Origin: Bugula neritina
Taxonomy: Eukaryota; Bryozoa; Gymnolaemata; Cheilostomatida; Bugulidae
Assembly: GCA_964035545.1 (NCBI GenBank)
Contig: OZ037767.1
Span: 15,495,498 to 15,559,497 of the forward strand
Reading direction: 5' to 3'
Length of the DNA stretch: 64,000 bases
The position numbers and the translations under genes are program-made. Below are positions 8,201-60,735 of this stretch, one piece after another (position 1 is the stretch's first letter; each line of letters begins with the position of its first letter). Below the pieces are notes generated by a model. It was not told the DNA's origin. It ran no database searches and saw only the letters and a program-made list of their open reading frames with translations.

Positions 8201-9009
8201 AACCGAAGACTCCAGGCCGCCAGCTCCGCATTTGGGAGGCTGCAAACACGCGTTTTCAACAACAAGGATATATACAGACAGACCAAACTAAAAGTATACA
8301 AAGCCATTGTTCTCCCGACACTACTTTATGCCTCTGAAACTTGGGTAACCTACAGCCACAACCTGCTGTCCCTCGAGAGATTTCACAACCGCAGTCTCAG
8401 GCGAATCCTCGGAGTCAAATGGCAAGACAGGCAGACTACTAACAGTGTTCTCGATAAAGCTCAAACTACAAGTATTACTACCATGATTGTGAAGAGACAA
8501 CTGAAGTGGTCTGGCCATGTGGTAAGAATGGATGATAACCGGCTACCAAAAAAGATCATGTACTCTGAGCTGAACACTGGAAATCGCTCACAGGGTGGTC
8601 AGAGGAAAAGGTATAAAGACACTCTACACGAGAGCCTTAAGCAGTGTTTCATTCGACCACAGACCTGGGAAGTTCAGGCCTTGGACAGAAAAAATTGGAG
8701 AACTGTTGTGCATCAAGGGACAGCGATTTTTGAACAACAACAACGCCAAAAACGAGAGCACAAACGGTTGTTAAGGAAAAGCAGGGAGTTATGCTCTGTT
8801 ACACACCCACCAGTGACTGACTCTAGTAACATTTGTCCTCACTGTGGCAAATTATGCCGATCTCGAATTGGGCTTGTGAGTCACCTCAGAACTCACAACC
8901 TCTAGTAGGATCTTACGGATTTTTGAACTGGAACGGATTACGGATCTTGGCACAGACTATGGCTTGCAAGCAGACATCATACTCGTCACACGAGGGATTG
9001 CTGACACAC
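5207..9009 (+). mobile_element. full-length LINE (APE-type non-LTR retrotransposon), 3.8 kb
   Basis: A complete element of 3,803 bp between two copies of a 12-bp duplication. It has about 510 bp of 5' leader, one long reading frame (5717-8905) and a short 3' UTR with no poly(A) tail. The single ORF, the compact size and the absence of a poly(A) end resemble RTE-like elements, but the clade is provisional. It inserted about 40 bp downstream of the older R2-type relic. The intact duplication and only two nonsense changes suggest a fairly recent insertion. Confidence 0.8.
5717..8905 (+). pseudogene. LINE endonuclease-reverse transcriptase, single frame with two in-frame TGA codons
   Basis: Starting at ATG 5717 (MNIATWNVRTM, the usual start of an apurinic endonuclease domain), the same frame runs 1,062 codons to TAG at 8903. 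The only breaks are TGA at 5765-5767 and 6212-6214. The N-terminal endonuclease carries QETRLAD, LGDFNARVG and the late motif DHRLIL. The RT follows, with FIDLKKAFDTVH, GVKQGCV and QYADD; the catalytic Asp pair is near codon 742. The C-terminus ends in one C2H2 finger (CPHC...HLRTH, near codon 1040). The second TGA sits where Trp would be expected (TGG to TGA); the first could be a decayed CGA. Both look like ordinary single-base decay, though stop readthrough cannot be excluded from sequence. Confidence 0.85.
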
Positions 9010-15158: not shown

Positions 15159-15463
15159 TGTTATGATTTTCAGATTTAGGGTTGATGTGCTATCCAGAGA
15201 GTCTATTTATTTGCTATAGAACTGCACCAGGATAAGTCGAGTGAACGAGTATATTTTACACACAATTATACATTATAAAAACGATACATTATATTCAAAC
15301 AAGTTACACATCTAATCTATTTCACACTCTAGCTTCGACTGAGTTAACAGCGGGAAACTATAATCGCTGCTAACTATCAACTACGCTAATTGGCTATCCA
15401 TTGTTCCGGGTCAATTAGGCGACCCTACATGTTGTGCTGCTGGTAGTTCCACGAACCACCACA
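15159..15463 (-). repeat. 3' LTR of element 1
   Basis: 305 bp, TG...CA, matching 22320-22624 except for one visible G/C difference in the segment CAATTAGGCGACC versus CAATTACGCGACC. It lies next to the polypurine tract. Confidence 0.93.
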
Positions 15464-15479
15464 CCGCCCCCACCAGCAG
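15464..15479 (-). promoter_or_regulatory. polypurine tract of element 1
   Basis: On the minus strand CTGCTGGTGGGGGCGG abuts the TG of the 3' LTR. Element 2 has the closely similar CTGCTGGGGGGGACGG at 29021-29036 in the same place. This is the expected primer for plus-strand DNA synthesis. Confidence 0.8.
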
Positions 15480-15753
15480 AAAGCCATCTTTCTGATATAT
15501 ATATAAAAAAAAACATTCATTAGTAACCGCATACATCAGTGGACAAAAATAATACATAATATACAGGAAGAGACATAATAATAGACAGAGTCATTATAAC
15601 GATCCGTTGCATACAATTGGCCAGCTGTAGATAGACGAGGAATACTAGCTAGCTGTGGTGTTAGACAGGGGATAACCTGTTAAGCAGTCAAACATTTACA
15701 TGACATCTTGGTTTCTCCCAAGAGGCGGAGTTGGAGTACTCCGGGTAGTCTAA

Positions 15754-16541
15754 CTAGAGTCCTTGTTGGGCACGCCGGTGCTTGGCTTGGCATGTACGCA
15801 GTTTCCGTTTCATACGGCATACGGATCCCTTTAGCTGGAAGAGTCCTGTGGTAGTGTTAAGTAGATCTGGTGCCAGCTGGGTGAATTCTTCTTGTAATCG
15901 CAGGAGGCGTTCTTCTACTGTGGCTAGGCGGACTGGGTCTGGGGACGGTGTCCGTCTGCGGCGCAAGGGTGGACTGGGGGACCTGGTTCGTCTCTTCGTC
16001 GGGGTAGGGGAGATCTCTCCTTCTTCTGGATATGTGAATTCCTCGGGAGTGTATGTAATTTGAGGGCGGTCAGACACCAACGGGGATTGTTGGCGGGCGT
16101 TGTCTAACACACGTTGGAACCCCGAGGACAGAACGGCTAACAGCATGGCCTTCTTCACCAGAGGTCGTATAAGTGTGAGGAACTCCGGGTATAGCTTAGC
16201 GTCGACCACGTAGTTTTCTCCAGGGAAACAGCCCGTCGCTCGGTGTCTGGTGACGGGGTAGGGATACACATCATTGTACCCGCAGGGGCAGAATGTTAGT
16301 AGGAGATGAGCATTGACGTGTAGTTTAAGGGAGCGGTGAGAGGCGCAATCTTCACCACAGATCTGGCATCTCGTCCGTCCTCTGGACCCCCAGGCCGTTT
16401 CTATTTCTTCTTCTGTTTGTGGAGACACCCACCGCCAACGGCGGCGTAGTGGCTCAGGCCGGTCACCACTAGCATACTCCTCCGGATGCGGAGCGGGAAG
16501 TGTTCTATCCCGTACCCTGGTTGTAGCGGGTCGAGTGTAAT
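15754..16541 (-). CDS. extra 3' ORF of element 1: zinc-finger/coiled-coil protein, predicted spliced exon 2
   Basis: An open frame (16575 down to 15754, 273 codons) lies between pol and the 3' LTR. It has no ATG before its conserved part; a splice acceptor (ACTTTTTCAG) places the exon start at 16541. Joined to the Gag donor at 22246 it would make a protein of about 276 residues. It contains a C2H2 finger (C-x2-C-x12-H-x3-H, starting CQIC), then a CPCG...YPYPVTRH segment that may be a second metal-binding unit, an Arg/Ser/Pro-rich stretch, and a C-terminal heptad-like region (VEERLLRLQEEFTQLAPDLL). Element 2 has a homologue. It shows no signal peptide or membrane segment, so it is not a typical envelope. 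A nucleic-acid-binding accessory role is inference. Confidence 0.75.
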
Positions 16542-16566
16542 CTGAAAAAGTTTCAACAGTGTTAAT
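16541..16566 (-). promoter_or_regulatory. predicted splice acceptor for the extra ORF, element 1
   Basis: On the minus strand a TTAAC branch-like motif is followed by ACTTTTTCAG ending at 16542, then AT. The junction splits the GAT codon so that a G from the donor restores it. Element 2 has the same arrangement at 27966-27979. Confidence 0.6.
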
Positions 16567-16855
16567 ACAGTACACTGCCGTGTTGTCAGCTTGAACAGCT
16601 TGGCAACTCCTAATTCAGTTACCTCGTAGAGATTTATGGTAGTGAATAGTCAGATAGAACACGTATTGCAATGAGATTATAAAAATCTCTAAGTCAAACT
16701 GAGTTCTTACTACGGTATTTCACTAACCTATCTCCAGCTCGATTGACTCAGTGAGTCCGAGCTGAGCGATGCAATCTAGTTTCGTATTAAGATATAGTTA
16801 ACTCACCCCACGATCTGTTGTCGTAAGACATACTGAATGTGTGAAATGGTTTGAA

Positions 16856-17446
16856 CTACTGCTTAGAAACACGTCTACTCCTGACTGCATCAGCGTATGA
16901 AAAGATCGAGCAACGTGGTTGGGGTGCGTGATTAAGACTTTGTGCACCCGGCGGATGAATTTTGTTTCTATTTCCGCCGATACAAAAGTTGATATTTCCG
17001 TGGTGTTGACAACTCCCACATTTGCTCGATACTTTTCTCGTACGGTTTTCCCCTAGACTTTCATACGCGCCGCTTTTAACGCAGTCGCATATGAAGTCCT
17101 TCAAGTATGCGGGGGGTTGCCTCGTACGCTGTCCCCTTTCTAGGGGGGGTGACACGCTTGCCGGTTCGTTAGTAGGGGCCTCTAATGGCGTCTCTACTTC
17201 ACCGTTAGCGGTCACCTCTTCTTGTTCTCCGGATGGAGCCCCTCCCTCCGTGGGGGTTTGCACTTCCGGAACCGGTTCGGTTTCTGGAAGTGATGGAATT
17301 AGACTTGGCGGTGGCGGACACGCTTCTGTTGATAAAAGCTGCCGCTCCTCTCTCACCAAGTTTTCTTCCCGCGGTATGACCACTTCGTATTCAGGTCCAT
17401 GCCGCCGTCGCCCGCGCGTTGTTGTCTGCCTCCTGGGCTCTAACAA
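16856..17446 (-). pseudogene. Pol C-terminal tail, element 1
   Basis: An open frame of 196 codons continues Pol beyond the integrase after a frame change at a run of eight C (minus strand, near 17447-17456). It is Pro/Glu-rich, contains TRQPPAYLKDFICD, a segment typical of the region after gypsy integrases, and ends in a Cys/His-containing tail finishing FSYADAVRSRRVSKQ. The tail is conserved to the last residue in element 2 (ending 27669), so it was probably part of the functional ancestor. Confidence 0.7.
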
Positions 17447-17491
17447 CGGGGGGGGCTTCTCCCACTCTGTCGGGGCTAGCCCAATATGGTT

Positions 17492-18893
17492 TCAAGCGAG
17501 ACTCATTCTGGATAAACACCTGTCCTGAGCGCTCGATCTTGTACGTATGATTGGGCATAGCCTCGACTTCAGTTTATCAGCCTGTCCGCGACGCCTACGG
17601 TAATTGACCATCCACACCTTATCTCCCGTTTGATAGAGAGGTGGTTCATCGGAATCTTCGTGCCGCACCTTCCACTGCTGTTGGCGCAGTATATCGTGTG
17701 CGGCCTTCATCCGTTCCACTAGTTCACTGGCATACTCGTGAACCGAGTTGTCTTGCTCTGGAACGTGATAGGTGAGATGGTCAGGGACACGAGTCTCTCT
17801 CCCGAGCATCAAGAGGTTTGGGGTCTCACCAGTACTGGTGTGTGGGGTGCTACGGTATGCACGCATGACTTGCGGCAACACCGTATCCCATTCCTCTTGA
17901 CCTCGTCCAAGGAGGAGACTCCGGAGTGCATCACCTAGCATCCGGTTGTTGCGCTCCACCACCCCGTTACCTTGAGGGTGGTAGGGGGTGGTCCTGCTCT
18001 GATTTACTCCCCAGAGGTGGCAAAGGTCGCTCATCAGTTGAGACTGGAATTGAGCGCCTTGATCAGAGTGTATCTGTTCGGGGAGCCCAAAATAACAGAA
18101 TACATGTTGGTCTAGTGCCCTGGCCACTGTTGGGGCTGACGCATCTGGGATAGCCAGAGCATCCGCCCACCTAGTAAAGTGGTCGGTTAGTACTAGGATC
18201 CAATTATTGCCTCTGGGGGTCAGGGGCATGGGTCCGACTAGGTCTACAGCGACTACTTGCCAGGGCCTACCAGCATATAGCCTCCGCCGTCCTGCTTCAC
18301 CAGGGGGGCGGCTATGCTTACTGGCCTGGCAGATCTCACACTGTTTGACTCTGAGCCGGACGTCACGCTCCATTTGTGGCCAATACCACCGGAGTCGTAA
18401 TTTGGACATCACTCTCTTGACCCCTGCGTGGGCCTGTTTGTGAGTATCCCAAATCAACTCACGGCGGATGGCCGTGGGGCAGACTACCCTCTTCCTCTCC
18501 GGGTGTCTGCCGCTGGCGGCTAGAGAGATGGTTAATAACCCATCCTGCCCGATCCGCAGCGAGTCCCAACGCTGACAGTATAGCCGGAACTCGTATGCGT
18601 TCCTCGCTGGGTCGTCGCCCTTCCCTTTTGGCCCGGTATATGTCTGCCACGACTCCAGGCAGCTCTTCGTGGAGCTTCTTCAGCTCCCGAACATTACCGG
18701 CCAGTACAGGGTTGGCGCGGAGGTTTTGTACATCCTCCGGGGACTCATCAACTCTTTGCCTGGGTTGACCTTGGTCCCAGTCAAACGGTGCTCTGTGGTG
18801 AGCCAGCGTCTCCAACTCGCATCGCGGGGGACCTCCATCCCTCCTCTCGATGTTGAGACACTGTTTGCAACCTCCGTCAGGTTGGCGACTCAA
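17492..18893 (-). pseudogene. Pol linker and integrase, element 1 (broken)
   Basis: After the RNase H stop the frame resumes at 18893 and runs to 18459. A one-base shift near 18600 then moves the coding into the frame ending at 17492. The integrase has the H-H-C-C zinc-binding domain (H...H in HKQAHAGVK, CEICQ) and all three catalytic residues: D in VAVDLVGPM, D in SDQGAQF and E in VVERNN. Its C-terminal part appears to lack about ten residues and shifts frame near 17560. The core looks intact, but it cannot be translated as one chain from this copy. Confidence 0.8.
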
Positions 18894-18911
18894 CCCATCC
18901 GCATTGCTGTG

Positions 18912-21446
18912 TCATTTGCCCGGTCGATGTTCGATCCGGTACGAGAATTCAGCTAGGATTTCGAGCCACCGGGCGACCTGACTAGAGGGCTCTGCTCTCT
19001 TGCACAACCAGATCAGCGAGGCATGATCCGTACGCAGCCGGAACTTCCTGCCGTATAGGTATGGTCTGAAGTGCTTCACTGACTTGATTACTGCCAGCAG
19101 CTCCTTGCGGGTAGTGCAGTAATTTCGTTCAGCGGGTGAGAGAGACTTGCTGTAGTAGGCTACTACTACCTCTCGGCCTTCCTGCACTTGTGACAGCACA
19201 GCGCCAACATTTTGGTCACTGGCGTCCGTGTCGAGGATGTACTCCAGAGTGGGGTCTGGGTAGGCCAAGATGGGCGCCGTTAGTAGGCAGCCCTTGAGGC
19301 GGTCGAACGCTTCTTGTTCGACTGGGGTCCACTGCCACGTCACTCCCTTTGCGGTGAGCCGGTTTAACGGCTGGGCTATGCCCGCAAAGTCTGGTATGTA
19401 TTGCCTGTAATACCCTACCAGCCCCAAGAAAGCCCGGAGTCTGGTCAAGTCTTGGGGGGTGACCCAGTCTTCTACTGCCCGTACCTTTTCGGGATCCGTT
19501 GCCACGCCGTTTCGACCGACAACGTGCCCCAGGTACTTGACCTCCGGCTGCAATAGAGCGCACTTGGAAGGTTTGAGCTTAAGACCGGCACCTCGGAGTC
19601 TCTCGAAAACCTCCTGCAGACGACTGACATGTGTCTCGAAGTCTGGAGAGATTACGATGACATCATCGAGGTAGACCAGCAGTGTCTTCCAATGGAGTCC
19701 GCTAAGGACTTGTTCCATCAGCCTCTGGAAGGTGGCTGGGGCGGAGGTTAACCCGAAGGGCAGTACCTTCCACTTCCACAAACCGTCCCGTGTGATAAAC
19801 GCCGCTTTCTCCTGGGCGTCGGGACTCAGAGGAACTTGCCAATAGCCGCTTAGGAAGTCTAACGTACTGAAGTACTTGCTGCCGGCTAGGGCGTCCAATG
19901 ACTCGTCAATACGAGGTAGAGGGTAAGCGTCCTGTATGGTTACGCTATTGAGTTTGCGGTAATCCACACAGAACCGCCAACTGCCGTCTTTCTTCCGGAC
20001 CAGTACGACTGGCGAGCTCCACGCACTATGGGCGGGCTCTATCAGTCCCCGGTCCAGAAGATCCCGTACTTGTCGGCTAACTTCCTTCTCTTTTTCAGGC
20101 CCCAGTCTGCGTGTGGGCTGCCGGACAGGGACTGTCCCTGCAGTCAGCGGTATTTCGTGCCTGACAACTCCAGTCAGCCCCACGTCATGATCTCCGCTAC
20201 TGAACACATCACCGTAGTCGCGTAGCAACTTCGCCATGGCTTGGCGTTCCTTGTTGTTCGCGCAGCCGCCACTGGCTGTTCCGTATATCTCCCGGAGATG
20301 TGTTGGGACTGCCCCTCGTCCCTGAATAGGGCACTGAGGGAGTGCCTCTGTCGCATCACCCAGCGACGGGCCTACGTCTCCCTCCTGAACAGAGTGAAAA
20401 CGGCCCAGCATCGACCCAGCCGGGAGCTTGATAGGCTCGGTAAAGGGGTTGACGCACTGCACTAAGATCTCCCCTTGCTCAGTCAGCTGATTCAGACTGC
20501 TGGCAAGTTGGATCTTTTCGTGCGCGCCTTCAACCACCCCGAGTCCAGAGATCCGGCTATTATTCACCCTGCAGTGAATGGTAGCCCGGGAGTGGCCTGG
20601 TATGATACGGTTGCGTACCACTTGCACACCTCCCACTAAAGGGCGGCCGAACTTGTCGACGCAGGCGAGTTCCCGCCCGGACATCATCATTGCAGATCTG
20701 CTAAAATCTATGTGACATCCGTGCCGTTTAAGGAACGGCATCCCGAGGATAGCATCCTCCTTGAGCTGACTGACGATGAACGTCTCTTGGATCGTTTGAT
20801 CACGGACTCGTCCCGTCAGCTCAATTATACCATAGAAGGGAAGGCACGACCCGTCAGCTAGGGTGCCGTATTCCCCTTCGTATGATTCCATCTCGCCCCT
20901 GACCCTAGCACTGAGGGTGTCGAAGAGTTGGCGGCTTAAGAGGTTTGTGGTACAGCCCGAATCAATGAGGAAAGTAACAGCTTTGCCTTCCAGTTTACCG
21001 GGCAAGAAATAGCTGTTCCCATGGGGCTGCACCTGAACTCTCTCTTCAGGCCCTACTCTCGCAGGGAGTACCTCCCTCGCTTTGGGTCGCGAAGGAGGTC
21101 TCTTGGGGCGGTGGTAGGTAGGCCTCGGGGGTGCCGAGGTTAGATCCCCGGCTACCTTTGTGGGCTCCCATCCAGATTCTTGGACTCGTAGCCCTGTGAA
21201 TCTGTTGTGAAGGGGCATAGAAAAGGCAGCCGCGGGGCGAAGCCCCTTGCTGGTCCGTCGTGGCTGTTGCCACTGTTGGTTGCCAGTACGCGGTACCCGT
21301 CTGGGTGACCTGCGTTTCTTCTTCCCTGGGGGTTTCATCGTCGGCCCGCAGGAGGTGGGAACATCTGCGGGCCGCGGTAGTTTAACCCCTGATTTAGGAA
21401 GGGACAATATCGGCGGAAATGCCCTTGATTTCCGCACTCCCAGCAA
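18912..21446 (-). CDS. Pol protease-RT-RNase H, element 1
   Basis: An open frame in the -1 frame relative to gag, entered through the frameshift site at 21380-21386 rather than by its own ATG. It includes an aspartic protease (FLIDSGCTTNLLS), a conserved spacer, a reverse transcriptase with VDYRKLNS, LPFGLTSAPATFQ and the catalytic VYLDDV, and RNase H (TDASDQNVGAVLS and RTDHASLIWL). It stops at TGA 18914-18912, directly after HRPGK, where related proteins read on into NADGLSR. The TGA probably replaces TGG, since the downstream frame continues for another 140 codons. It overlaps gag by about 110 bp. Confidence 0.88.
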   Translation of the reverse strand: MLGVRKSRAFPPILSLPKSGVKLPRPADVPTSCGPTMKPPGKKKRRSPRRVPRTGNQQWQQPRRTSKGLRPAAAFSMPLHNRFTGLRVQESGWEPTKVAGDLTSAPPRPTYHRPKRPPSRPKAREVLPARVGPEERVQVQPHGNSYFLPGKLEGKAVTFLIDSGCTTNLLSRQLFDTLSARVRGEMESYEGEYGTLADGSCLPFYGIIELTGRVRDQTIQETFIVSQLKEDAILGMPFLKRHGCHIDFSRSAMMMSGRELACVDKFGRPLVGGVQVVRNRIIPGHSRATIHCRVNNSRISGLGVVEGAHEKIQLASSLNQLTEQGEILVQCVNPFTEPIKLPAGSMLGRFHSVQEGDVGPSLGDATEALPQCPIQGRGAVPTHLREIYGTASGGCANNKERQAMAKLLRDYGDVFSSGDHDVGLTGVVRHEIPLTAGTVPVRQPTRRLGPEKEKEVSRQVRDLLDRGLIEPAHSAWSSPVVLVRKKDGSWRFCVDYRKLNSVTIQDAYPLPRIDESLDALAGSKYFSTLDFLSGYWQVPLSPDAQEKAAFITRDGLWKWKVLPFGLTSAPATFQRLMEQVLSGLHWKTLLVYLDDVIVISPDFETHVSRLQEVFERLRGAGLKLKPSKCALLQPEVKYLGHVVGRNGVATDPEKVRAVEDWVTPQDLTRLRAFLGLVGYYRQYIPDFAGIAQPLNRLTAKGVTWQWTPVEQEAFDRLKGCLLTAPILAYPDPTLEYILDTDASDQNVGAVLSQVQEGREVVVAYYSKSLSPAERNYCTTRKELLAVIKSVKHFRPYLYGRKFRLRTDHASLIWLCKRAEPSSQVARWLEILAEFSYRIEHRPGK

Positions 21447-22288
21447 AAACTGACCGTTTCTCCATGTGGCGGCGCCGATGGCCGCATGGGCTCAGGGGCG
21501 GTACTCACTGGGTTTTGTGGTGTCAGTGTTGCTATCAGCTTGGCTAGCATATCTGTCAGTTGAGTGACTTTCGATGCCGTCGCCAACTGGGACACGGCAG
21601 CCGCGGCGGGGGTTTCCTCCCCTTGTCCCGCGGCCGTGTCTGCGCGGTCTATCTCCACTTGATGGGAGCTTCCGCGACTTTTATGCATTTGATTAGCTAG
21701 GAGGTAAGCTTCCCCCTCAGTCAGAGCATCTTCAACGGTGGTGACTCCCCTAGCTAGAAACTGGTGGTGGAGACCCAGATCGTCGACAGATGCTATGAAA
21801 GCGTCGAGGGTATACCTCTCGCGGTTGACTGGGGGCAAGTCGCTGTACGCGATCTGTGCCAGCTTCATGACCGCGGCGGCATGCTCCCGCAGCGGGGTGC
21901 GGGGATCACGCCGCAACCTCTGTAATCGGGCCCTGGCATCTGTAGCAGAGAGGCCGAAGCGGGCCCGCAGAGAAGCAAAGATATTATCAATGTCTACGCC
22001 CAGCCCATAAGGCTTGGCTTTGTCCATCAATGCCATTCTAAGCTTCAGCAAGGCCACCCTAGGGGGCCACTGGGCGACGTCCATTACGTCGCTAAACTCT
22101 TGGATAGATTGTTCCACCTCCTCTTCACCCGTGAAGGTGGGCGCCTTTAACCTGTAGCGGTCCTCAGCTAGTTCTCGCGGAACCCTTCGCTCTTCTACTA
22201 CATGGTTAACAGGCATTGTCTCTACAGCATTGTCTCTACGCTCACCTTCTATTGCCGGTGGTTGAGTTCCAGCATTTTCAGTCTCCAT
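21335..22288 (-). CDS. Gag, element 1
   Basis: 317 codons from ATG at 22288 to TGA at 21335. The central part is a capsid-like helical region beginning KAPTFTGEEEVEQSIQEF, homologous to the Gag of elements 2 and 3. A single CCHC zinc knuckle (CWECGNQGHFRRYC) lies near the C-terminus. The start lies 13 bp past the primer binding site. A consensus splice donor sits after 14 codons (22246/22245) and a -1 frameshift signal overlaps the last codons. It should form the particle that packages the RNA. It is open from end to end and is probably functional. Confidence 0.88.
   Translation of the reverse strand: METENAGTQPPAIEGERRDNAVETMPVNHVVEERRVPRELAEDRYRLKAPTFTGEEEVEQSIQEFSDVMDVAQWPPRVALLKLRMALMDKAKPYGLGVDIDNIFASLRARFGLSATDARARLQRLRRDPRTPLREHAAAVMKLAQIAYSDLPPVNRERYTLDAFIASVDDLGLHHQFLARGVTTVEDALTEGEAYLLANQMHKSRGSSHQVEIDRADTAAGQGEETPAAAAVSQLATASKVTQLTDMLAKLIATLTPQNPVSTAPEPMRPSAPPHGETVSFCWECGNQGHFRRYCPFLNQGLNYRGPQMFPPPAGRR
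21342..21386 (-). promoter_or_regulatory. -1 ribosomal frameshift signal, element 1
   Basis: Minus strand: slippery heptamer GTTAAAC (21386-21380) read as G TTA AAC in the Gag frame, spacer TACCG (21379-21375), perfect 10-bp stem CGGCCCGCAG/CTGCGGGCCG (21374-21365 with 21351-21342) and a 13-nt loop. The heptamer follows the X-XXY-YYZ slip register in the Gag frame, and the pol frame is exactly -1. The whole cassette recurs in element 2. Confidence 0.8.
22241..22250 (-). promoter_or_regulatory. predicted splice donor inside gag, element 1
   Basis: Minus strand AGAAG then GTGAG; the exon would end at 22246, 43 nt after the A of the Gag ATG, with one base of the next codon left over. Element 2 has its donor at exactly the same distance and phase, and element 3 at the same phase. 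Confidence 0.6.
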
Positions 22289-22300
22289 CTTGGATGCACT

Positions 22301-22318
22301 ATCCCACCGCTGCCACCA
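22301..22318 (-). promoter_or_regulatory. primer binding site, tRNA-Leu type, element 1
   Basis: Minus strand TGGTGGCAGCGGTGGGAT starts one base inside the 5' LTR. It is the complement of ATCCCACCGCTGCCA plus CCA, the 3' end I recognise for animal tRNA-Leu (AAG/TAG type). Identical in all three LTR elements. Confidence 0.85.
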
Positions 22319-22319
22319 C

Positions 22320-22624
22320 TGTTATGATTTTCAGATTTAGGGTTGATGTGCTATCCAGAGAGTCTATTTATTTGCTATAGAACTGCACCAGGATAAGTCG
22401 AGTGAACGAGTATATTTTACACACAATTATACATTATAAAAACGATACATTATATTCAAACAAGTTACACATCTAATCTATTTCACACTCTAGCTTCGAC
22501 TGAGTTAACAGCGGGAAACTATAATCGCTGCTAACTATCAACTACGCTAATTGGCTATCCATTGTTCCGGGTCAATTACGCGACCCTACATGTTGTGCTG
22601 CTGGTAGTTCCACGAACCACCACA
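22320..22624 (-). repeat. 5' LTR of element 1
   Basis: 305 bp, TG...CA, followed outside by the duplicated ATAC. It faces the 5' LTR of element 2 (24125) across 1.5 kb, so the two elements are transcribed divergently. Confidence 0.93.
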
Positions 22625-22628
22625 ATAC

Positions 22629-24120
22629 TTATACTCGTACCGGTACTGATAGTGATAGTAATACTAATAGTAATAGTAATATAAATTTAAATAATATTTA
22701 CTCATTACTGGCAATCACAACGGCAATAGTAACTTAAACTGTAACAGTAATGGTATGGGTATGTTTGAAATTGTCACCATCAGTATTGCTATGAGTCAAA
22801 ATATAATGCTATCATACCAATAATTTAAAATAGTAGTATTACAAAGCTTCATTTGTAACTTTTACTTGTACCAATTTGGAATTTTGAGTTATACATATTC
22901 TTAGTAAAAGTCTTCAAATTTATTGTCAAAATGAACTTGAAATTAAACACTCAGTGGTAAAAATTAAACTAAGACTGACTGTAAGTGACTAAAATTAAAA
23001 ATAAGTAATTTTAAATATCGATTTAGTATTTTTCTTACTCTTTGTCTTAAAATTGATTTTTTTTTCTATTTCTATTACTATTGCTATTAGTATAGTTGAC
23101 TTAAATTTAATAATAGATATGATTATATCTTTATAAATGTGATCTTTGATTTTATGAATAGTAATTCGAAAACTCTTTGTTATTATTTATTTTTGATCAT
23201 TGTAGTTATTATCATTATATTTGTATAATAATTATGATTATCAACTTCAATATCGATATTTGTATCATGATATGGATATCTGCCTCCATCCCATGTTCCA
23301 TCCCATGTTCCATCCCATGTTCTATTTTGCAGTGCCTTTTTACATTCACGTCTAGGTTCACATTGCGATGGTCATACTGATAGCACTTGGGGATAGTGAG
23401 GAGCATAATGATTATCACTAATATTAAGATTATCGTTATTAGGATTTAGAATAATTTAATAAACAAGCAACTTAAAGCAAATGTTTTTACTAATACAAAT
23501 ATTAATTACTAATATAAATATAATACTATGAATATTATAATTATTATACTTTACAATTCAAAGTAAGATAATCATAATACGAACTGGTAAAACTAAATAT
23601 AAAGTAAACGTAATAATACTAATAGTAGTTATTCATTCTCCTTTGGTTTCACATACTAATAATTGGAAACCTCTGTCCTAATATTATTTCTATTATTATT
23701 GCTCAAAGTTTGATCCCCATTTAATTTTATAGTTCACTCACCAGCTACATAATTTTATTAAAATACATGTGGTATTAGTTATAGTAATAGTGAAACTTGA
23801 AGTTGAATAGCATGCTTATTACTCACTGCTTTTTGCTTACATTATTAGGGTTACTCTTTAGTCTTAGAGATACCCTAACATAAACTTGAAAGCTGGAGGT
23901 AGTACTAGTCTAGTGCTGTGTTAATTCTACACTGTTGACTTATCAACACTGTGACTATAATTATGACTCCTAAGTCAAAGTCATTTTCATAGAGTAGTAA
24001 TCACTATGACAGACTGAAAGTCAGGATGATTAAATATAATGATAAAGTGTGTAAGAATAAATCATAATTCTTCAATTATAAAGATAAATGGATAAAAATT
24101 GCAATCATAGTTTAATGTGC
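22629..24120. other. AT-rich spacer between two divergent LTR elements
   Basis: No gene is supported. It contains TAGTAATA-type simple repeats near 22640-22690 and three tandem copies of a 12-mer (CCATCCCATGTT) at 23286-23322. Confidence 0.6.
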
Positions 24121-24124
24121 CTAT

Positions 24125-24476
24125 TGTAGTGAGTAGTGCAAGTACAAATACAGGAATCGCCCTCTCCCTACTCTTGGAATACTTAGACTCTTATGTAGCA
24201 ACCAATTAGCAGCTCCGGAAGATATGCTTCCGAGTCACGTGACACTTCCCGGGTTATTAGCATTATATCACGTTGTTGTAAGCGGAGGCTTGTAGTAGTA
24301 ACATGTGTTAGTAGTTGACTCTTGTATAGGATAATTTGATGTGATGTTTGGTTTATGCTTTATTGTGGATAATAAATATAATTACTCGACAGCTACCCTA
24401 GTAATTGATAACAGAATAACCAGCTAACTATACGCAAGTAAATAACTCACGCTCAGTAATTGCACAAATTACTACA
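24125..24476 (+). repeat. 5' LTR of element 2
   Basis: 352 bp, TG...CA, identical on inspection to 29037-29388. It carries AATAAA at 24371-24376 as a candidate polyadenylation signal, plus palindromic motifs listed separately. Confidence 0.95.
24215..24243 (+). promoter_or_regulatory. candidate enhancer motifs in the LTR of element 2
   Basis: An inverted pair CCGGAAG (24215-24221) and CTTCCG (24227-24232) resembles paired ETS sites. It is directly followed by the 10-bp palindrome GTCACGTGAC (24234-24243), an E-box of the CACGTG class. The same motifs recur in the 3' LTR (+4,912 bp). A promoter role is inferred from position and motif only. Confidence 0.35.
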
Positions 24477-24477
24477 G

Positions 24478-24495
24478 TGGTGGCAGCGGTGGGAT
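24478..24495 (+). promoter_or_regulatory. primer binding site, tRNA-Leu type, element 2
   Basis: TGGTGGCAGCGGTGGGAT one base after the LTR, identical to the sites in elements 1 and 3 and complementary to the 3' end of tRNA-Leu including CCA. Confidence 0.85.
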
Positions 24496-24511
24496 CTTGC
24501 GTATAGCAGTC

Positions 24512-25462
24512 ATGGCAGAAGACGGCACGGAGCTACCCATTCCACTGAATGAAGGTGAGAGAGATAATGTTGATATACCTGTGGAACCAGTGGTGTTAGA
24601 TGAAGAAGTGAGAATTCTTAGAGAGTATGGTGAAGACAGATACCGGATGAAGGCGCCCACCTTCGCAGGCGAAGAAGCAGTGGAGCAGTTTATCCAAATA
24701 TTCCAAGATGTGATGGAGATTTCAGAGTGGCCGCCAAGGGTGGCGCTGCTCAAGCTCAGGATGGCGCTGACGGGCAAAGCTAAGCCGTACGGAGCGGGAC
24801 CTGACATAAACGGAATCTTTGCTTCCCTGCGGGCCCGTTTTGGCATCTCTCCCATAGATGCGCGGGCCCGTCTACAGAGGATGCGGCGTGATCCTCACAC
24901 GTCACTAGAAGAGCACGCTGCCACGGTGTACCCACTAGCGCAGATTGCATTCCGCGATCTGCCTCCGGTACACCGTGAGAGGTATACTTATGATGCCTTC
25001 GTGCAGTCCATCAACGACTTGGGGCTCCACCATCAACTCCAAGCGAGGGGAGTCACCACGGTCGAAGATGCACTTGCGGTGGGAGAAGCCTACCTCTTGG
25101 CGACTCATATGCACCGCAACCGCGTGGCCTCCCGCCAGGTGACCACGGAGCACTCTACTGCTCACACCGAATTAGACGCGGAACCCTCCGCGGTGGCTAA
25201 TGTGAACCAGATGTCACTAGCGTCAAAAATCTCACAGATGACTGACATGCTAGATAAACTGGTCACCACATTAGCTTCCCCAAGCCAGGTAGATACTGCC
25301 CGTGAGCCTAGCGGGCCGCAGGTACAATCACCAGGCATGGGGCACCACTTCTGCTGGGAATGCGGAAGGCCAGGACATTTCCAGAGAAACTGCCCTCAAC
25401 TCCCACCAGGGTTAAACTACCCCGGCCCGCAGATGTTCCCACCTCCTGCGGGCCGTCTGTGA
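24512..25462 (+). CDS. Gag, element 2
   Basis: 316 codons from the first ATG (24512) to TGA (25460-25462), without a break. The capsid-like region (KAPTFAGEEAVEQFIQIF onward) aligns along its length with element 1 Gag, and the zinc knuckle CWECGRPGHFQRNC lies near residue 281. The splice donor after codon 14 and the frameshift cassette over the last codons match element 1. Gag presumably makes the particle in which the element RNA travels; preserving it in an RT-less element suggests it is still used or was until very recently. Confidence 0.9.
   Translation: MAEDGTELPIPLNEGERDNVDIPVEPVVLDEEVRILREYGEDRYRMKAPTFAGEEAVEQFIQIFQDVMEISEWPPRVALLKLRMALTGKAKPYGAGPDINGIFASLRARFGISPIDARARLQRMRRDPHTSLEEHAATVYPLAQIAFRDLPPVHRERYTYDAFVQSINDLGLHHQLQARGVTTVEDALAVGEAYLLATHMHRNRVASRQVTTEHSTAHTELDAEPSAVANVNQMSLASKISQMTDMLDKLVTTLASPSQVDTAREPSGPQVQSPGMGHHFCWECGRPGHFQRNCPQLPPGLNYPGPQMFPPPAGRL
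24551..24560 (+). promoter_or_regulatory. predicted splice donor inside gag, element 2
   Basis: GAAG then GTGAGA; the exon would end at 24554 after 14 Gag codons plus one base, the same distance and phase as in element 1. With the acceptor at 27978 it would remove a 3,424-nt intron. Confidence 0.6.
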
Positions 25463-27669
25463 ATCACCCAGGGAGGCCCGCGCGTCTGTCGCCCCGCTGG
25501 GCGCCGCGCGGAGATGCTGTGAAGTGGCGACCCCTGCGGCAAGTAGGCTCAAGCCACTCGCCGCCTGGGTCCTCTACGCCACTCCGGCACCAACACGGAG
25601 CCGGCAGACGGTTGACCACAGAGCCTGCGAGGGAAACGGTACAAGCGCCGCAAGGCGTACCGCCCCAACCTCGGCAGCTGGTCAATAGTCGCCGCCAACC
25701 GTGGACCCCTCGACCCACAGCGAGGGAGGTGCAACCACGGCACACTCAATTGCAGCCGCACGGAAGTAGCTACTTCCTGCCAGGGAAGTTAGCCGGCAAG
25801 CCTGCCAACTTCCTCCTGGACTCCGGCTGCACCACCAACCTCCTTAGCCGTCAGTTCTTTGACACCCTCAGCGCTAAGGTCAAGGACAGGTTGGCACCGT
25901 ACGAGGGGGATCATGGCACCTTGGCAGATGGGTCGTGCATTCCCTTCTACGGCATTATTGAGCTAACTGGTTACGTCCGTGACCAGGCCATCCAAGAGAC
26001 GTTTATCGTCGGGCAGCTCAACGAGGATGCTATCCTCGGGATGCCATTCTTACAACGACACGGTTGTCGCATCGATTTCAGTAAATCTGCGATAATCATG
26101 GGCGACAAGGAGCTCGCTTGTGTCGATAAGTTTGGTCGTCCTCTAGCGGGAGCAGTGCAGGTAGTACGGAGCTGTACTATACCAGGCCACTCCCGGGCTA
26201 CCGTCCGCTGCAAGGTAGACGGTGGCCAAACCTCTAAGTTGGGAGTTGTCGAAAGTACGCACTCGAGAGTCCAACTTGCCCGTAGTTTTAGCCGGCTCAC
26301 GGGGCAAGGAGAGATCTCAGTGCAGTGTGTCAACCCCTTCTCAGAGACAGTAGACCTACCACCCAGATCCATGCTGGGTCGCTTCCATCCTGTCCAGGAG
26401 GAAGCCATTGGGCCGTCGTCGGGAGCTACGACGGAAGGTCCTCAGCAGAGCCCGTCTCGAGGGCGGAGGACCGTCCCAACCCACGCCTCCCCTCCTCCAG
26501 GGACGCGTGGCTGCACAGGCAACGGGAAGCGCCAGGCTATGGCTAGGTTGCCACATGGGTACAGTGAGGCGTTCAGCCACACAGACCACGGAGCCCGCCT
26601 AAATAGAGCAGGCTGCCGTGAGGTACCACGGGCGGCGAGGACCGCCCCTGCTCAGCCACTTCAACAGAGGGCTGACACGCCCCCGGAGGCTGCCCAGAGC
26701 CTCCGCGCCAAACCTGTATGGGCTGGTAACGTTAGGGAGCTACCGAAGCTCCAGGAATGCCTTCCTGGGGTGGTAGCCGACGTGTACCGAGCGAAACAGG
26801 AGGGGCGACGACCCAGTAGTACACAACGGCGACAGGGATGCGCCGAGTTACGGCTGTACTGTCAACGTTGGAGCTCTCTGCGGGTCGGGCCAGATGGTCT
26901 GCTAACCATGACCTTGGCCGCCAACAACGGACAGCCAGCCAGGAAGAGGGTTGTCTGCCCAGTTGCCATCCGCCGGAAGTTGATACAAGACACCCACGAG
27001 GAGACTCACGGAGGAGTCCAAGGGGTGGTCACCAAGCTACAACTCCGGTGGTACTGGCCTAACATGGAACGGGATATCCGACGCAGAGTGAGACGGTGCA
27101 AAGTCTGCCAGACCAACAAGCATAGCCGTCTCCCTGGTGAAGCGGGGCGGCAGACGCATTGTGCGAGAAGGTCTCGGCAGGCGGAGACTGTCAACCTGGC
27201 CGGAAACACCTCCATGACACGTCAGGAAGACTTGGCGAGGCGAGAAAGGCCACTTCCGTCCTTGAAAGTGCGCCCACCGCCCCCAACGTCAAGCCTGCCA
27301 TCATCACCACTTCCGGAACCAGAAACAGGTCCGGAAGTGCAAAAACCCCCCGTGGGAGGGGCTCCGCAAGGAGATACCAACATAGGACCAGCACCACACA
27401 CTAGGCAACTTCCAGCGTGTCTCAGAGACTGTGTACGTGACCGCGGTATAAGCGGCAGTAACAAAAGTCTAGAGAGGCCTCGCATGGGAAAACAGGCAAA
27501 GAGCCGTGGGAGTTGTGATCACCACGAGAATCTCAACTTTTGCCTCGGCGGAATCTCACACGAGATTCATCCGCTGGAAGTGAAAAGCCCTAGTCACGTT
27601 TCACAACCACGCTGCCCGGTCTTTTCCTATGTTGATGCAGTCGAGAGTAGACGTGCCAGTAAACAGTAA
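25360..27669 (+). CDS. deleted Pol of element 2: protease, integrase zinc-binding domain and tail in one open frame
   Basis: A 769-codon open segment in the -1 frame relative to gag, entered through the frameshift site at 25411. It has an aspartic protease (FLLDSGCTTNLLSRQFF), the conserved protease-RT spacer, then a junction near 26665 that jumps from the RT leader to the region after RNase H (NVRELPKLQECLPGVVAD). Next come the H-H-C-C zinc-binding domain (HEETHGGVQ, CKVCQ) and the start of the integrase core, in which the first catalytic Asp is now Asn (TVNLAG). A second junction near 27215 leads to the Pro-rich tail ending FSYVDAVESRRASKQ. Both deletions keep the frame and no stop occurs. 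It can still supply a protease but not DNA synthesis or integration. Confidence 0.88.
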   Translation: MRKARTFPEKLPSTPTRVKLPRPADVPTSCGPSVNHPGRPARLSPRWAPRGDAVKWRPLRQVGSSHSPPGSSTPLRHQHGAGRRLTTEPARETVQAPQGVPPQPRQLVNSRRQPWTPRPTAREVQPRHTQLQPHGSSYFLPGKLAGKPANFLLDSGCTTNLLSRQFFDTLSAKVKDRLAPYEGDHGTLADGSCIPFYGIIELTGYVRDQAIQETFIVGQLNEDAILGMPFLQRHGCRIDFSKSAIIMGDKELACVDKFGRPLAGAVQVVRSCTIPGHSRATVRCKVDGGQTSKLGVVESTHSRVQLARSFSRLTGQGEISVQCVNPFSETVDLPPRSMLGRFHPVQEEAIGPSSGATTEGPQQSPSRGRRTVPTHASPPPGTRGCTGNGKRQAMARLPHGYSEAFSHTDHGARLNRAGCREVPRAARTAPAQPLQQRADTPPEAAQSLRAKPVWAGNVRELPKLQECLPGVVADVYRAKQEGRRPSSTQRRQGCAELRLYCQRWSSLRVGPDGLLTMTLAANNGQPARKRVVCPVAIRRKLIQDTHEETHGGVQGVVTKLQLRWYWPNMERDIRRRVRRCKVCQTNKHSRLPGEAGRQTHCARRSRQAETVNLAGNTSMTRQEDLARRERPLPSLKVRPPPPTSSLPSSPLPEPETGPEVQKPPVGGAPQGDTNIGPAPHTRQLPACLRDCVRDRGISGSNKSLERPRMGKQAKSRGSCDHHENLNFCLGGISHEIHPLEVKSPSHVSQPRCPVFSYVDAVESRRASKQ
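25411..25455 (+). promoter_or_regulatory. -1 ribosomal frameshift signal, element 2
   Basis: Slippery GTTAAAC (25411-25417; TTA AAC in the Gag frame), 5-nt spacer TACCC, 10-bp perfect stem CGGCCCGCAG (25423-25432) with CTGCGGGCCG (25446-25455), and a 13-nt loop. It lies five codons or fewer before the gag stop. All parts match element 1, although both reading frames overlap here, which also constrains the sequence. Confidence 0.8.
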
Positions 27670-27965
27670 TCAGTTACCACTCTCATTCCAAAATGTCTTA
27701 CTATTCTGGATCGAAGGGTGAGTTAATTATGTTTTTGGTATGATAACTAGACTGCATCAGTCAGCTTAGCTACACTAGCTAGCTGGAGATTCGATAATGA
27801 TAAACAGTGGTGGGAATACACGTCGACTTTGATTTTAAATAATCTGTCATAGCGAGTGTGTTCTCCATCAACTATTCATTAGCCTGAATCTCACGAGTGT
27901 AACTGAACAGAGTACCGGTCAGGCTGTACACGCCGACGGTGCCTCAGTGTATAATCTTTAACACT
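27670..27965 (+). other. non-coding gap between pol and the extra ORF, element 2
   Basis: About 300 bp without a supported reading frame. It corresponds to a similar gap in element 1 (16567-16855) and leads into the splice acceptor. Confidence 0.5.
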
Positions 27966-27979
27966 GCTACTCTTTCAGA
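27966..27979 (+). promoter_or_regulatory. predicted splice acceptor for the extra ORF, element 2
   Basis: A pyrimidine-rich GCTACTCTTTCAG ends at 27978, with a TTTAACAC branch-like motif about ten bases upstream of the tract. It splits a GAT codon as in element 1. Confidence 0.6.
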
Positions 27980-28694
27980 TCACACTCGAGTGACCACCTC
28001 CCGGTCACGGGACCAGCCAACCTCTCTGTCTATGGAAGAAGAGCCTGTAATGGAGAATGGCATACCAGTAGTACTCCGCCGACGACACCGTTGGGTGTCA
28101 CCCACGACAGAAAGGAGAATTGAAGAAGCCTGGGGACCCAGTGGACCACACCGAACCTGCCAGGTCTGCTTTGAGGAGTGTCCGTCACACCGCTCCTTGC
28201 GTTTACATGTAGATGCCCATTTCCTACTCCACTTCTGTCCCTGCGGGTTCCACGACGTCTACCCGTATCCCGTGACAGTACATAAGCTAAGCTGCTTCGC
28301 CGGAGAGAACCACACTGTTGATGAAGACAGTTTCCCCCTATACCTGGATGCCATCAAACCAGTCATCAGGAAGGCTATTACCCTGGCCGCACTAACGTCA
28401 GGGTTTCACGTACTGTTACTATCTGCCCGCCATAAGTCTCCTATGGTTCAGGGCCCACCTCCTACCCCCGTCAACCCTAGCAACACCCCAGAAGTAGAAG
28501 AAACAACCATATCCCGTATAACGGAGACCCCTATAACCCCACCAAGGCCTAGCCAGCTGGCTAACGTAGAAGAGCGGCTTCTAAGACTGCAAGCCGAGTT
28601 CACACAACTTGCCCCTGACTTGCTGGATACGACGACAGGTCTATACCAGTTGAAGGACTCAGTGGGACGACTGAAGAGGCGGCTACGGGCCTGA
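27979..28694 (+). CDS. extra 3' ORF of element 2: zinc-finger/coiled-coil protein, predicted spliced exon 2
   Basis: The open frame runs from 27939 to TGA 28694 but begins without ATG; the first ATG is near 28033, inside the conserved-length region. Spliced to the Gag donor it would give about 252 residues. It is homologous to the extra ORF of element 1: RHRWVSP, a C2H2 finger (CQVC... with C-x2-C-x12-H-x3-H), FCPCGFHDVYPYPV, then VEERLLRLQAEFTQLAPDLL near the C-terminus. The stop comes about ten codons earlier than in element 1, apparently by a Cys-to-TGA change, with homologous codons continuing beyond it. Function unknown; a nucleic-acid-binding or assembly role is inference. Confidence 0.75.
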
Positions 28695-29020
28695 CAGGCT
28701 CGACACAGAGCACGGTCGCTACAAGAAGCAGAGTCCAACCAATGAGAATGCCTGGGGTAGGCACCTTCGTTGAGCTATAGCTCGTTTGGAATGTGACGAG
28801 CGCTCCGACATTGGCCCGCGTGCTGGTAAGCACCCTCTCTCTTAATAGCTGACTAGATGTGTGTGATCGATCACCCTGTTGTCTTCTAATGTAAACGTTG
28901 TCGTGTTTAACTATTTCTTTTCTTACTCTTTGTGGGTTTACTTATGTATATTTTCCTTTTTGGATTATTGTATGGTTTTTCATTATGTTTTTTTATTGTG
29001 TTATCAGAAAGTAGGGCTTT
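28695..29020 (+). other. 3' untranslated part of element 2
   Basis: About 325 bp without a supported gene between the extra ORF and the polypurine tract. It includes a T-rich stretch at 28905-29000. Confidence 0.5.
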
Positions 29021-29036
29021 CTGCTGGGGGGGACGG
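29021..29036 (+). promoter_or_regulatory. polypurine tract of element 2
   Basis: CTGCTGGGGGGGACGG directly before the TG of the 3' LTR; matches the tract of element 1 except for a few bases. Confidence 0.8.
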
Positions 29037-29388
29037 TGTAGTGAGTAGTGCAAGTACAAATACAGGAATCGCCCTCTCCCTACTCTTGGAATACTTAGAC
29101 TCTTATGTAGCAACCAATTAGCAGCTCCGGAAGATATGCTTCCGAGTCACGTGACACTTCCCGGGTTATTAGCATTATATCACGTTGTTGTAAGCGGAGG
29201 CTTGTAGTAGTAACATGTGTTAGTAGTTGACTCTTGTATAGGATAATTTGATGTGATGTTTGGTTTATGCTTTATTGTGGATAATAAATATAATTACTCG
29301 ACAGCTACCCTAGTAATTGATAACAGAATAACCAGCTAACTATACGCAAGTAAATAACTCACGCTCAGTAATTGCACAAATTACTACA
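29037..29388 (+). repeat. 3' LTR of element 2
   Basis: 352 bp, no difference seen from 24125-24476. AATAAA lies at 29283-29288. It is followed by the duplicated CTAT. Confidence 0.95.
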
Positions 29389-59705: not shown

Positions 59706-59711
59706 GCATAT

Positions 59712-59980
59712 TGTAACGGGCGTGGTTTACTCGTCTCGCGCACCCCCTGCCAATCACAGAGAGTGATAGATAACAATTGTATTAAGCCAAGCAGTAGTAG
59801 TTAGTTAGCATGTAGCAACAGTGATGTAAAGCAGTAATTACCGTGATACTTAGAGATATTTTCATGTTTTATTATATACTTGTAATAAAGATTCCAAGTG
59901 AAACTACGATTGTATTGTCTGTGACTAAATGATAATTGGACTCACTAGAAGCCCACATAATTATTGTGCATCGCACAACA
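59712..59980 (+). repeat. 5' LTR of element 3 (inferred)
   Basis: It starts TGTAACGGGCGTGG and ends CACAACA, directly before the primer site with the same one-base gap as in elements 1 and 2. With no second copy in the window, the left edge (269 bp) is inferred. It contains AATAAA near 59884. Confidence 0.65.
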
Positions 59981-59981
59981 G

Positions 59982-59999: not shown

Positions 60000-60032
60000 A
60001 TTTCTAGCTGAGACAATGAACAGACGGGAAAC

Positions 60033-60735
60033 ATGACAGAACACACAACAAAACACCCGGGAGGTAAGCCAGCCAATTTTTTTGCATATAGAGGAGGTGT
60101 ATAGAGATAAACTGACCGCTCCCACCTTCACGGGTGTAGAAGATGTGGAGCAATTCATCGAGGAATTCCACGATGTGGTAGACGTCGCTCAGTGGCCGCC
60201 ACAAGTAGCCCTCGTCAAACTGCGGGAGGTATTGACGGAGCGCGCTAGACAGTTCGGACAGGGACGGAGCGTGGCGGAGATATTCACTGCACTACGGAGC
60301 CGTTTTGGCACCTCCGCCCTGGAAGCCAGGGCCCGTCTACAAGTGCTACGCCAAGCGGAAGACACTCCACTCCGTGACCACGTTGCCTTAGTGAAGAGAC
60401 TGGCACGGAGCGCGTACAGCGACCTGCCAGAAACACACCGACGGAACTTTACTCTCATTGACTTCATGCAGTCCCTGAAAGATGTGGGTCTCTACCACCA
60501 ACTAAAGGCGAAGGGAGTGACCACCTTAGAGAGTGCCCTCCAAGTCGGGGAAGACTACCTCCGGGCCGAACAGCTATATACCGAGAAAGCAGAAGGCAAG
60601 CAAGTCACCGCGGCGGTAGCCCAATCACTCGGAGAGAAGATGGGCCGGTTGACCGTCAGACTGAAACAGATGGCAAAGACCCTTACCGATGCCGGGCCCC
60701 CCAGCCGAGGACCAAAGGGAGAGACCCCAGAGTGA
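60033..60735 (+). pseudogene. Gag of element 3, frameshifted and lacking the zinc knuckle
   Basis: ATG at 60033 opens a frame that shifts by one base at a T7 run (60077-60083). The capsid-like part then continues to TGA at 60733 (LTAPTFTGVEDVEQFIEEF onward, aligned with the other Gags). The CCHC knuckle present in elements 1 and 2 is missing, and the stop lies where the frameshift site would be (GTGAACTACCCGG in place of GTTAAACTACC). A consensus splice donor (GGGAG then GTAAGC) sits 31 nt after the ATG in the same phase as in elements 1 and 2. Confidence 0.75.

What the first reader, a model, noticed from the sequence alone, without database searches (positions are those of the whole stretch)
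15754..28694. Extra retrotransposon protein apparently made by splicing the first 14 Gag codons onto a 3' zinc-finger ORF
In elements 1 and 2 the extra ORF has no ATG at its head. Both have a consensus donor exactly 43 nt after the Gag ATG (AGAAG/GTGAG at 22246; TGAAG/GTGAG at 24554). Both have a consensus acceptor with a branch-like TTAAC/TTTAAC motif (TTTTTCAG at 16542; CTCTTTCAG at 27978). In each, one leftover donor G plus AT rebuilds a GAT codon, so the fusion is in frame. Element 3, a third lineage, also has a strong donor early in gag in the same phase (60063). Flanking sequences and LTRs have diverged, so chance conservation of site, distance and phase is unlikely. This would be a retrovirus-like subgenomic strategy used for a non-envelope protein.
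Basis: partly seen in the sequence, partly recalled or inferred. Interest (0 to 1): 0.88.

Follow-up and report, generated by a model that had tools for sequence, protein, structure and literature searches.

The report
Spliced Gag-leader protein of a retrotransposon
Related retrotransposons in one unnamed 216-million-base genome appear to make an extra zinc-finger-like protein by splicing, joining its coding region either to the first codons of Gag or to a tiny start exon, because integrated DNA copies of both spliced forms are found.

Summary
The Gag-to-ORF3 join exists as DNA: one LTR-flanked copy in the same genome (L039/L069) holds leader, 43 nt of gag and the extra ORF, joined exactly at donor and acceptor; metagenome protein P0027 has the same join. 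Eight copies of families A and B have lost exactly that intron, as have two copies read in family C and a third listed. The gag donor is in phase in 75 of 79 gag starts from six families. ORF3 is under purifying selection in family C and matches no Pfam family above cut-off. A spliced 3' non-Env ORF with gag-frame exons is known from Cer1 CERV, and a donor just inside gag from Rous sarcoma virus: a new variant of a known kind. A CERV/Rev-like role in RNA export is inference. No RNA data were available.

The parts
22320..22624 (-). Element 1 5' LTR (305 nt; 3' LTR 15159-15463 differs by 1 substitution; TSD GTAT/GTAT)
21335..22288 (-). Element 1 gag ORF, ATG at 22288
22246..22288 (-). Element 1 Gag-leader exon: 43 coding nt up to donor AGAAG|GTGAGC
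16542..22245 (-). Element 1 predicted long intron (5704 nt), gag donor to ORF3 acceptor
   Evidence: the corresponding join is seen as DNA in L039 of family C, not in this family
16807..16831 (-). Element 1 local start exon ATGTCTTACGACAACAGATCGTGGG, donor |GTGAGTTA, 24 nt after the pol stop
   Evidence: donor motif at 272 places
16542..16806 (-). Element 1 local intron, 265 nt, ending TTTTTCAG
   Evidence: precisely missing in L017, L029, L082, L083
15754..16541 (-). Element 1 ORF3 body: C2H2-like Cys/His region and C-terminal long helix
15159..15463 (-). Element 1 3' LTR
24125..24476 (+). Element 2 5' LTR (352 nt, identical to 3' LTR 29037-29388; TSD CTAT/CTAT)
24512..25462 (+). Element 2 gag ORF
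24512..24554 (+). Element 2 Gag-leader exon: 43 nt up to donor TGAAG|GTGAGA
24555..27978 (+). Element 2 predicted long intron (3424 nt)
27693..27717 (+). Element 2 local start exon ATGTCTTACTATTCTGGATCGAAGG, donor |GTGAGTTA, 23 nt after the pol stop
27718..27978 (+). Element 2 local intron, 261 nt, ending CTCTTTCAG
   Evidence: precisely missing in L078, L079 and in the related copies L080, L081
27979..28694 (+). Element 2 ORF3 body
29037..29388 (+). Element 2 3' LTR
60033..60063 (+). Element 3 Gag-leader counterpart: 31 nt from the second ATG to donor GGGAG|GTAAGC, phase 1; this copy is frame-broken

Best explanation
[quoted passage not shown] ORF3 has one phase-1 splice acceptor that two alternative phase-1 donors can use. 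Donor 1 lies 43 nt inside gag (31 nt in some families); splicing removes gag-pol and makes a subgenomic mRNA whose product starts with the first 14 Gag residues. Donor 2 ends a 22-25-nt ATG exon lying 23-30 nt after the pol stop; splicing removes only about 260 nt and leaves gag-pol RNA otherwise complete, with ORF3 opened by its own ATG. Both joins give GAT and the same protein body. SHOWN as DNA: the local join in families A, B and C and the gag join in family C (and in P0027), the shared acceptor, the phase, and selection on ORF3. INFERRED: that both mRNAs are made and translated in living cells in every family; that the local ATG is reached by re-initiation after pol or by another transcript; and that ORF3, with its zinc-finger-like region and basic C-terminal helix, is an RNA-binding regulator that helps unspliced element RNA leave the nucleus, as CERV does for Cer1.
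For: (1) L039/L069: two LTRs (346 and 350 nt; 1 substitution and a 4-nt indel) flank a 1108-nt interior of PBS, leader, ATG + 43 nt of gag, then ORF3. The join is GGAATGAAG|ATCACACTCGA, against GGAATGAAG|GTGAGG in the gag of relative L116 and CTCTTGCAG|ATCACACTCGA in relative L040. (2) P0027, 81% identical to the spliced L039 product over its whole length, begins MAEEGTELPIPRNE|DHTR. (3) Local-intron loss: 8 places (reversed control 0) against 272 that keep the donor (control 1), both with up to 3 mismatches; plus family-C copies L053 and L059 (read) and C4:21224849 (listed, not read upstream). In family A the nearest neighbour of L083 and L029 is intron-bearing, and L017 and L082 are tied between intron-bearing and intron-loss copies, so losses probably recurred. 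(4) 75 of 79 gag starts carry a phase-1 GT[AG]A[AG] 31-46 nt after an open ATG, over six families whose leader peptides otherwise differ; the split codon is GGT in 72 of the 75 (not in L097, L098, L123), although GGT is 25 of 171 Gly codons in element 1 and 2 gag and pol. (5) ORF3 dN/dS is 0.11-0.24 in the ten pairs of five family-C copies. (6) A 25-nt phase-1 ATG exon with a consensus donor also follows pol in one copy each of families D and F.
Against: No RNA evidence at all. Only one exact gag-ORF3 DNA copy was found in 215.8 Mb, and none in families A or B. L039 lacks a perfect target duplication (CTGG against CTTG). The gag donor codes for a conserved E-G-[E/K], so part of its conservation may be coding. 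The shorter local-join pattern gave 20 places against 44 for its reversed control, so only its exact and near-exact rows, and those read further, count. No intron-loss copy was found for the acceptor proposed in families D and F. The export role rests on analogy; sequence comparison finds no relative of known function.
Confidence: 0.85

Rival explanations
1. Only the short local intron is functional. ORF3 is normally made from the MSY/MAC start exon, and the gag join is a rare by-product of a strong acceptor.
For: Local intron loss is commoner (8 in families A/B, 2 read and 1 listed in C, against 1 exact gag join). The local exon's reading phase matches ORF3 in families A, B and C, and a similar phase-1 exon is present in one copy each of D and F.
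Against: The gag donor is in phase 1 in 75 of 79 gag starts over six families. The gag join recurs in P0027, only 81% identical to L039's product. Counts of DNA copies reflect packaging of near-full-length RNA, not mRNA abundance.
Confidence: 0.2
2. The local intron mainly serves RNA handling: splicing a small 3' intron marks full-length gag-pol RNA for export, or competes with the gag donor and so protects full-length RNA; the local ATG is incidental.
For: A copy with the local join at C1:18781645 has its gag start 3199 nt upstream of ORF3, against 3456-3467 nt in ten other family-B copies, seven of which are listed with the intact local donor (the stretch between was not read). The local exon junction lies 48-55 nt after the pol stop in the copies of families A, B, C and F measured.
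Against: The reading phase of the tiny exon matches ORF3 in A, B and C, and a phase-1 exon exists in D and F, which this reading does not require.
Confidence: 0.15
3. The joined copies are chance deletions or assembly artefacts and no splicing occurs.
For: No RNA data; L039 has an imperfect target duplication.
Against: Twelve DNA copies (8 + 3 + L039) in three families share breaks exactly at GT-AG boundaries, at two different donors, and an independent metagenome sequence has the gag break.
Confidence: 0.03
4. ORF3 is an envelope-like or host-captured DNA-binding protein rather than an RNA export regulator.
Against: No Env family in Pfam scans. The matches cannot separate RNA from DNA binding, and model confidence is low (mean pLDDT 59.3), so the evidence is thin either way.
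Confidence: 0.3

Closest known systems
CERV of Cer1 (C. elegans LTR retrotransposon), PMC10309623
   [quoted passage not shown] made from a spliced mRNA whose exons 1-3 are in the gag frame; CERV has a candidate leucine zipper and a cysteine-rich loop; unspliced RNA must also be exported (abstract, passages and section 15 read).
   Different: CERV is 517 aa from five exons and the 3' ORF is only its C-terminal half; here the Gag leader is 10-15 codons and a second local start exon exists. Sequence relation to CERV was not tested.
Rous sarcoma virus (alpharetrovirus) env/src splicing
   Same: Splice donor just inside gag: gag AUG at nt 380 and donor at nt 397 (PMC5035971, passages read). That Env then carries the first six Gag codons is recalled, not read here.
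   Different: The 3' product there is Env or Src; here it is a small zinc-finger-like protein and there is a second donor near the acceptor.
gypsy (errantivirus) env subgenomic RNA, PMC4276936
   Same: Ty3/gypsy-type element with a third ORF expressed from a spliced subgenomic RNA (passages read).
   Different: Third ORF is Env; no Gag leader exon of this kind is stated in the passages read.
OVEX1 chicken endogenous retrovirus, PMC2717909
   Same: Third ORF of doubtful Env kinship, on the second exon of a singly spliced mRNA (passages read).
   [quoted passage not shown] no Gag leader.
BARE (Ty1/copia, barley), PMC3735527
   Same: LTR element that separates RNA pools for translation and replication (title and abstract start in the search listing only).
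   Different: Different superfamily; a single ORF.

Membership tests
Ty3/gypsy LTR retrotransposon | Flanking LTRs with TG..CA ends and short target duplication | tested here: met
   Elements 1 and 2: 305-nt and 352-nt LTRs, TSD GTAT and CTAT
Ty3/gypsy LTR retrotransposon | Domain order protease, RT, RNase H, integrase | tested here: met
   Element 1 only: Asp protease, RVT_1, RT_RNaseH, then H2C2 and rve, in separate ORFs. Element 2's pol ORF shows no RT, RNase H or rve
Ty3/gypsy LTR retrotransposon | RT phylogeny within the Ty3/gypsy clade | not tested
   no tree built
Cer1/CERV-like accessory system | Non-Env ORF between pol and 3' LTR joined by splicing to gag-frame exon(s) | tested here: met
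   L039 and P0027 joins, seen as DNA or predicted protein, not RNA
Cer1/CERV-like accessory system | Sequence or fold homology to CERV | not tested
   CERV sequence was not in hand
Cer1/CERV-like accessory system | Protein required for nuclear export of unspliced RNA | not testable with these tools
   needs cell experiments
Retroviral Gag-leader subgenomic mRNA (RSV type) | Donor a few codons after the gag AUG, in phase with the 3' ORF acceptor | tested here: met
Retroviral Gag-leader subgenomic mRNA (RSV type) | Spliced RNA observed | not testable with these tools
   no RNA reads; only DNA copies of the spliced form
Errantivirus/retrovirus Env | Signal peptide, furin site, transmembrane segment or Env family match in the 3' ORF | tested here: inconclusive
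   No Env family in Pfam; no signal-peptide or membrane predictor was run
C2H2 zinc-finger protein | Pfam C2H2 match above the curated cut-off | tested here: not met
   zf-C2H2 13.4 bits against cut-off 25.2; none at E 0.01 in 45 members
C2H2 zinc-finger protein | C2H2-type fold of the Cys/His region | tested here: inconclusive

The most novel reading that the evidence does not exclude
One acceptor with two competing phase-matched donors forms a switch. Using the gag donor makes a CERV/Rev-like regulator mRNA. Using the tiny 3' exon keeps gag-pol RNA whole while giving it a genuine splicing event that could license export, and opens the same regulator behind pol. This would be a retroelement-encoded splice switch between regulator RNA and genome RNA, kept in three families with the acceptor shown and probably in two more, including a family that has lost its polymerase and integrase core.
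Probability: 0.25. Interest if true: 0.8.

Novelty: new variant of a known kind. Interest (0 to 1): 0.6.

Why it matters
It shows from genomic DNA alone that a Ty3/gypsy-type element very probably uses retrovirus-style subgenomic splicing for a small non-envelope protein, with alternative first exons. That links simple LTR elements to complex retroviruses and gives a further candidate, beside Cer1, for an element-encoded RNA-export regulator. Integrated spliced copies offer a way to demonstrate retroelement splicing when no RNA is available.

Tried and rejected
Looked for the gag-ORF3 join in the element-1 family: 28-base pattern, up to 3 mismatches, 0 matches. The 16-base join with up to 1 mismatch gave 51 places against 28 for the reversed control; only L039 is exact. 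Of the other 50, I fetched 8: five near-matches (L073-L077), which read as unrelated sequence, and three of 17 TAAAG sites (L070-L072), which proved to be family D/F-type ORF3 with no intron there. The remaining 42 are 14 TAAAG sites and 28 read TGCAG or AGCAG; the latter I take as unspliced family-C acceptors, as in the family-C loci read.

(20-base local join, up to 3 mismatches): 20 places against 44 for the reversed control. Six rows are exact and two have one mismatch; these eight are the places that one search finds with a longer pattern and control 0. Rows with 2-3 mismatches are mostly chance; three of them are family-C joins (two read).

Considered that the gag donor is only coding conservation: not excluded on its own, but the Gly codon GGT, the change from GAG to AAG with the donor kept in family F, and the DNA copies argue against it. 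The product 0.146^6 overstates independence, because families share ancestry.

Families D and F have about 75 extra N-terminal ORF3 residues where A-C have intron; acceptors proposed there (D CGATGCCAG|TA, F CTCACCTCAG|TC; introns of 53 and 52 nt) found no intron-loss copy, so they stay unproven. Family E's ORF3 region looked degenerate in the one copy read (L167). The viral-contig scan with P0027 found nothing. In one search, of 100 proteins found with the L039 product only P0027 covers the whole query. The MSY-type query found 59 proteins, none new with full-length cover; the new sequences (P0121-P0137) were not read. The structure model is weak overall, so I draw no function. The four exceptions among 79 gag starts: L104 has lost its ATG, L133 was missed by the script although the donor is visible, L148's donor is mutated, L150 is phase 2. 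Four of the 83 gag starts given (L095, L100, L129, L158) were dropped because no PBS was located. A first script for this count failed on its PBS pattern and was replaced. In one search, 34 of the 66 loci given matched the local-exon pattern, and no intron-bearing family-B copy was among them, so nothing is said on recurrence in B. In the dN/dS run L064 was not parsed, L040 stops early (188 codons), and pairs between families are saturated or nearly so at silent sites. Host not identified; I suspect a sponge, from recall only.

In-print searches: (papers under open licences only; judged by titles and abstract starts, plus the papers cited). None named this ORF3 or this element.
Full report
WHAT IS THERE. 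Element 1 (minus strand, 15159-22624) and element 2 (plus strand, 24125-29388) are young LTR elements: LTRs of 305 nt with 1 difference and 352 nt with none, and 4-bp target duplications GTAT and CTAT. Element 1 has protease, RT, RNase H and integrase domains. Element 2's pol ORF shows only protease and the integrase zinc-binding domain. [quoted passage not shown] the two products are 55% identical.

All four sites, the 43-nt distance and the GAT phase are confirmed. Element 3's donor is in phase only from its second ATG (60033, 31 nt), this copy is frame-broken, and no ORF3 was seen within 3 kb of the window end.

DIRECT EVIDENCE FOR THE GAG JOIN. A protein search with the two ORF3s found 147 proteins (P0002 is the window's own), of which 120 were listed. 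One of the 120, P0027, begins MAEEGTELPIPRNE|DHTR: 14 Gag residues, then ORF3 from the predicted GAT. Searching the genome with P0027 gave 146 scored matches, and only one covers residues 1-261, L039. L039 is flanked by two LTRs. Between them lie the primer-binding site, leader, ATG and 43 nt of gag, then ORF3, with gag-pol missing. The break is exactly GAATGAAG|ATCACACTCG; relatives read GAATGAAG|GTGAGG in gag and CTCTTGCAG|ATCACACTCG before ORF3. This is what reverse transcription of the predicted spliced RNA would leave. The flanks CTGG and CTTG are not a perfect duplication.

A SECOND START EXON. Directly after pol both window elements have a 25-nt ATG exon with a consensus donor: ATGTCTTACGACAACAGATCGTGGG|GTGAGTTA (16831-16807) and ATGTCTTACTATTCTGGATCGAAGG|GTGAGTTA (27693-27717). 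They lie 265 and 261 nt before the ORF3 acceptor, in the same phase. With up to 3 mismatches the unspliced motif occurs at 272 places (reversed control 1) and the spliced one at 8, all exact (control 0): four of family A and four of B type. Family C has ATGGCTTGCCAAGAATCGAGAG|GTGAGTTA, and L053 and L059 lack its intron exactly; a third place is listed. In family A the intron-loss copies L083 and L029 have an intron-bearing copy as nearest neighbour over 300 nt, and L017 and L082 are tied, so the loss probably happened more than once. A copy with the local join at C1:18781645 has its gag start 3199 nt upstream of ORF3, against 3456-3467 nt in ten other family-B copies, so near-full-length RNA without the local intron was evidently copied into DNA.

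CONSERVATION. Of 83 gag starts (80 fetched, 3 from the window), 79 had a located primer-binding site, and 75 of these have a phase-1 GT[AG]A[AG] 31-46 nt after an open ATG. By leader peptide they fall into six families that I named A-F. The split codon is GGT in 72 of the 75; GGT is 25 of 171 glycine codons in gag and pol of elements 1 and 2. One copy each of families D and F has a distant ORF3 with about 75 extra N-terminal residues and a 25-nt phase-1 ATG exon after pol. Their acceptor is only a proposal, and a search for its spliced product found nothing.

HOW IT PROBABLY WORKS. One acceptor, two donors, one phase. The gag donor gives a short mRNA in which ORF3 borrows the Gag start. The local donor gives a long mRNA in which ORF3 has its own start, 23-30 nt behind the pol stop in the copies of families A, B, C and F measured. 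Both joins are shown as DNA; transcription and translation are inferred. The best functional guess is an RNA-binding regulator of the element's own unspliced RNA, by analogy with CERV, which is made from a spliced mRNA with gag-frame exons and is needed for nuclear export of Cer1 RNA (PMC10309623: abstract, passages, section 15). I put that function at about one in three.

WHAT IS KNOWN. Rous sarcoma virus has its gag AUG at nt 380 and donor at nt 397 (PMC5035971, passages). Gypsy env comes from a spliced subgenomic RNA (PMC4276936, passages). So the strategy is a new variant of a known kind; the points I did not find in print are the ORF3 family, the double first exon, and the proof by integrated spliced copies. 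The literature searches covered open-licence papers only.

Noticed in passing
24125-29388: Element 2's pol ORF lacks RT, RNase H and the integrase core yet the element keeps gag, protease and ORF3. Ten other copies read have about the same gag-to-ORF3 spacing (3456-3467 nt; 5747 in element 1), so it looks like an amplified non-autonomous family that retained ORF3.
   Followed up: partly
L165, L166, L168, L169: Families D and F encode about 75 extra ORF3 residues in the place where families A-C have the local intron: either an exon became an intron or an intron became coding.
   Followed up: partly
16807-16831 and 27693-27717: The local exon junction lies 48-55 nt after the pol stop in families A, B, C and F, close to the usual distance limit for nonsense-mediated decay (the limit is recalled).
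   Followed up: no
L066 (C6:11190329-11192832): A family-C copy with LTR and leader only about 0.8 kb upstream of ORF3 reads as gag running on towards ORF3, an internal deletion rather than a spliced copy.
   Followed up: partly
6296-8905: Another reverse-transcriptase ORF (869 aa, RVT_1 E 4.8e-39) of a different element type; five other places in the genome have an RT match with the same score.
   Followed up: no
59700-64000 and L084: Element 3 breaks off near the end of pol, about 2.5 kb past the window, and continues into AT-rich sequence.
   Followed up: partly
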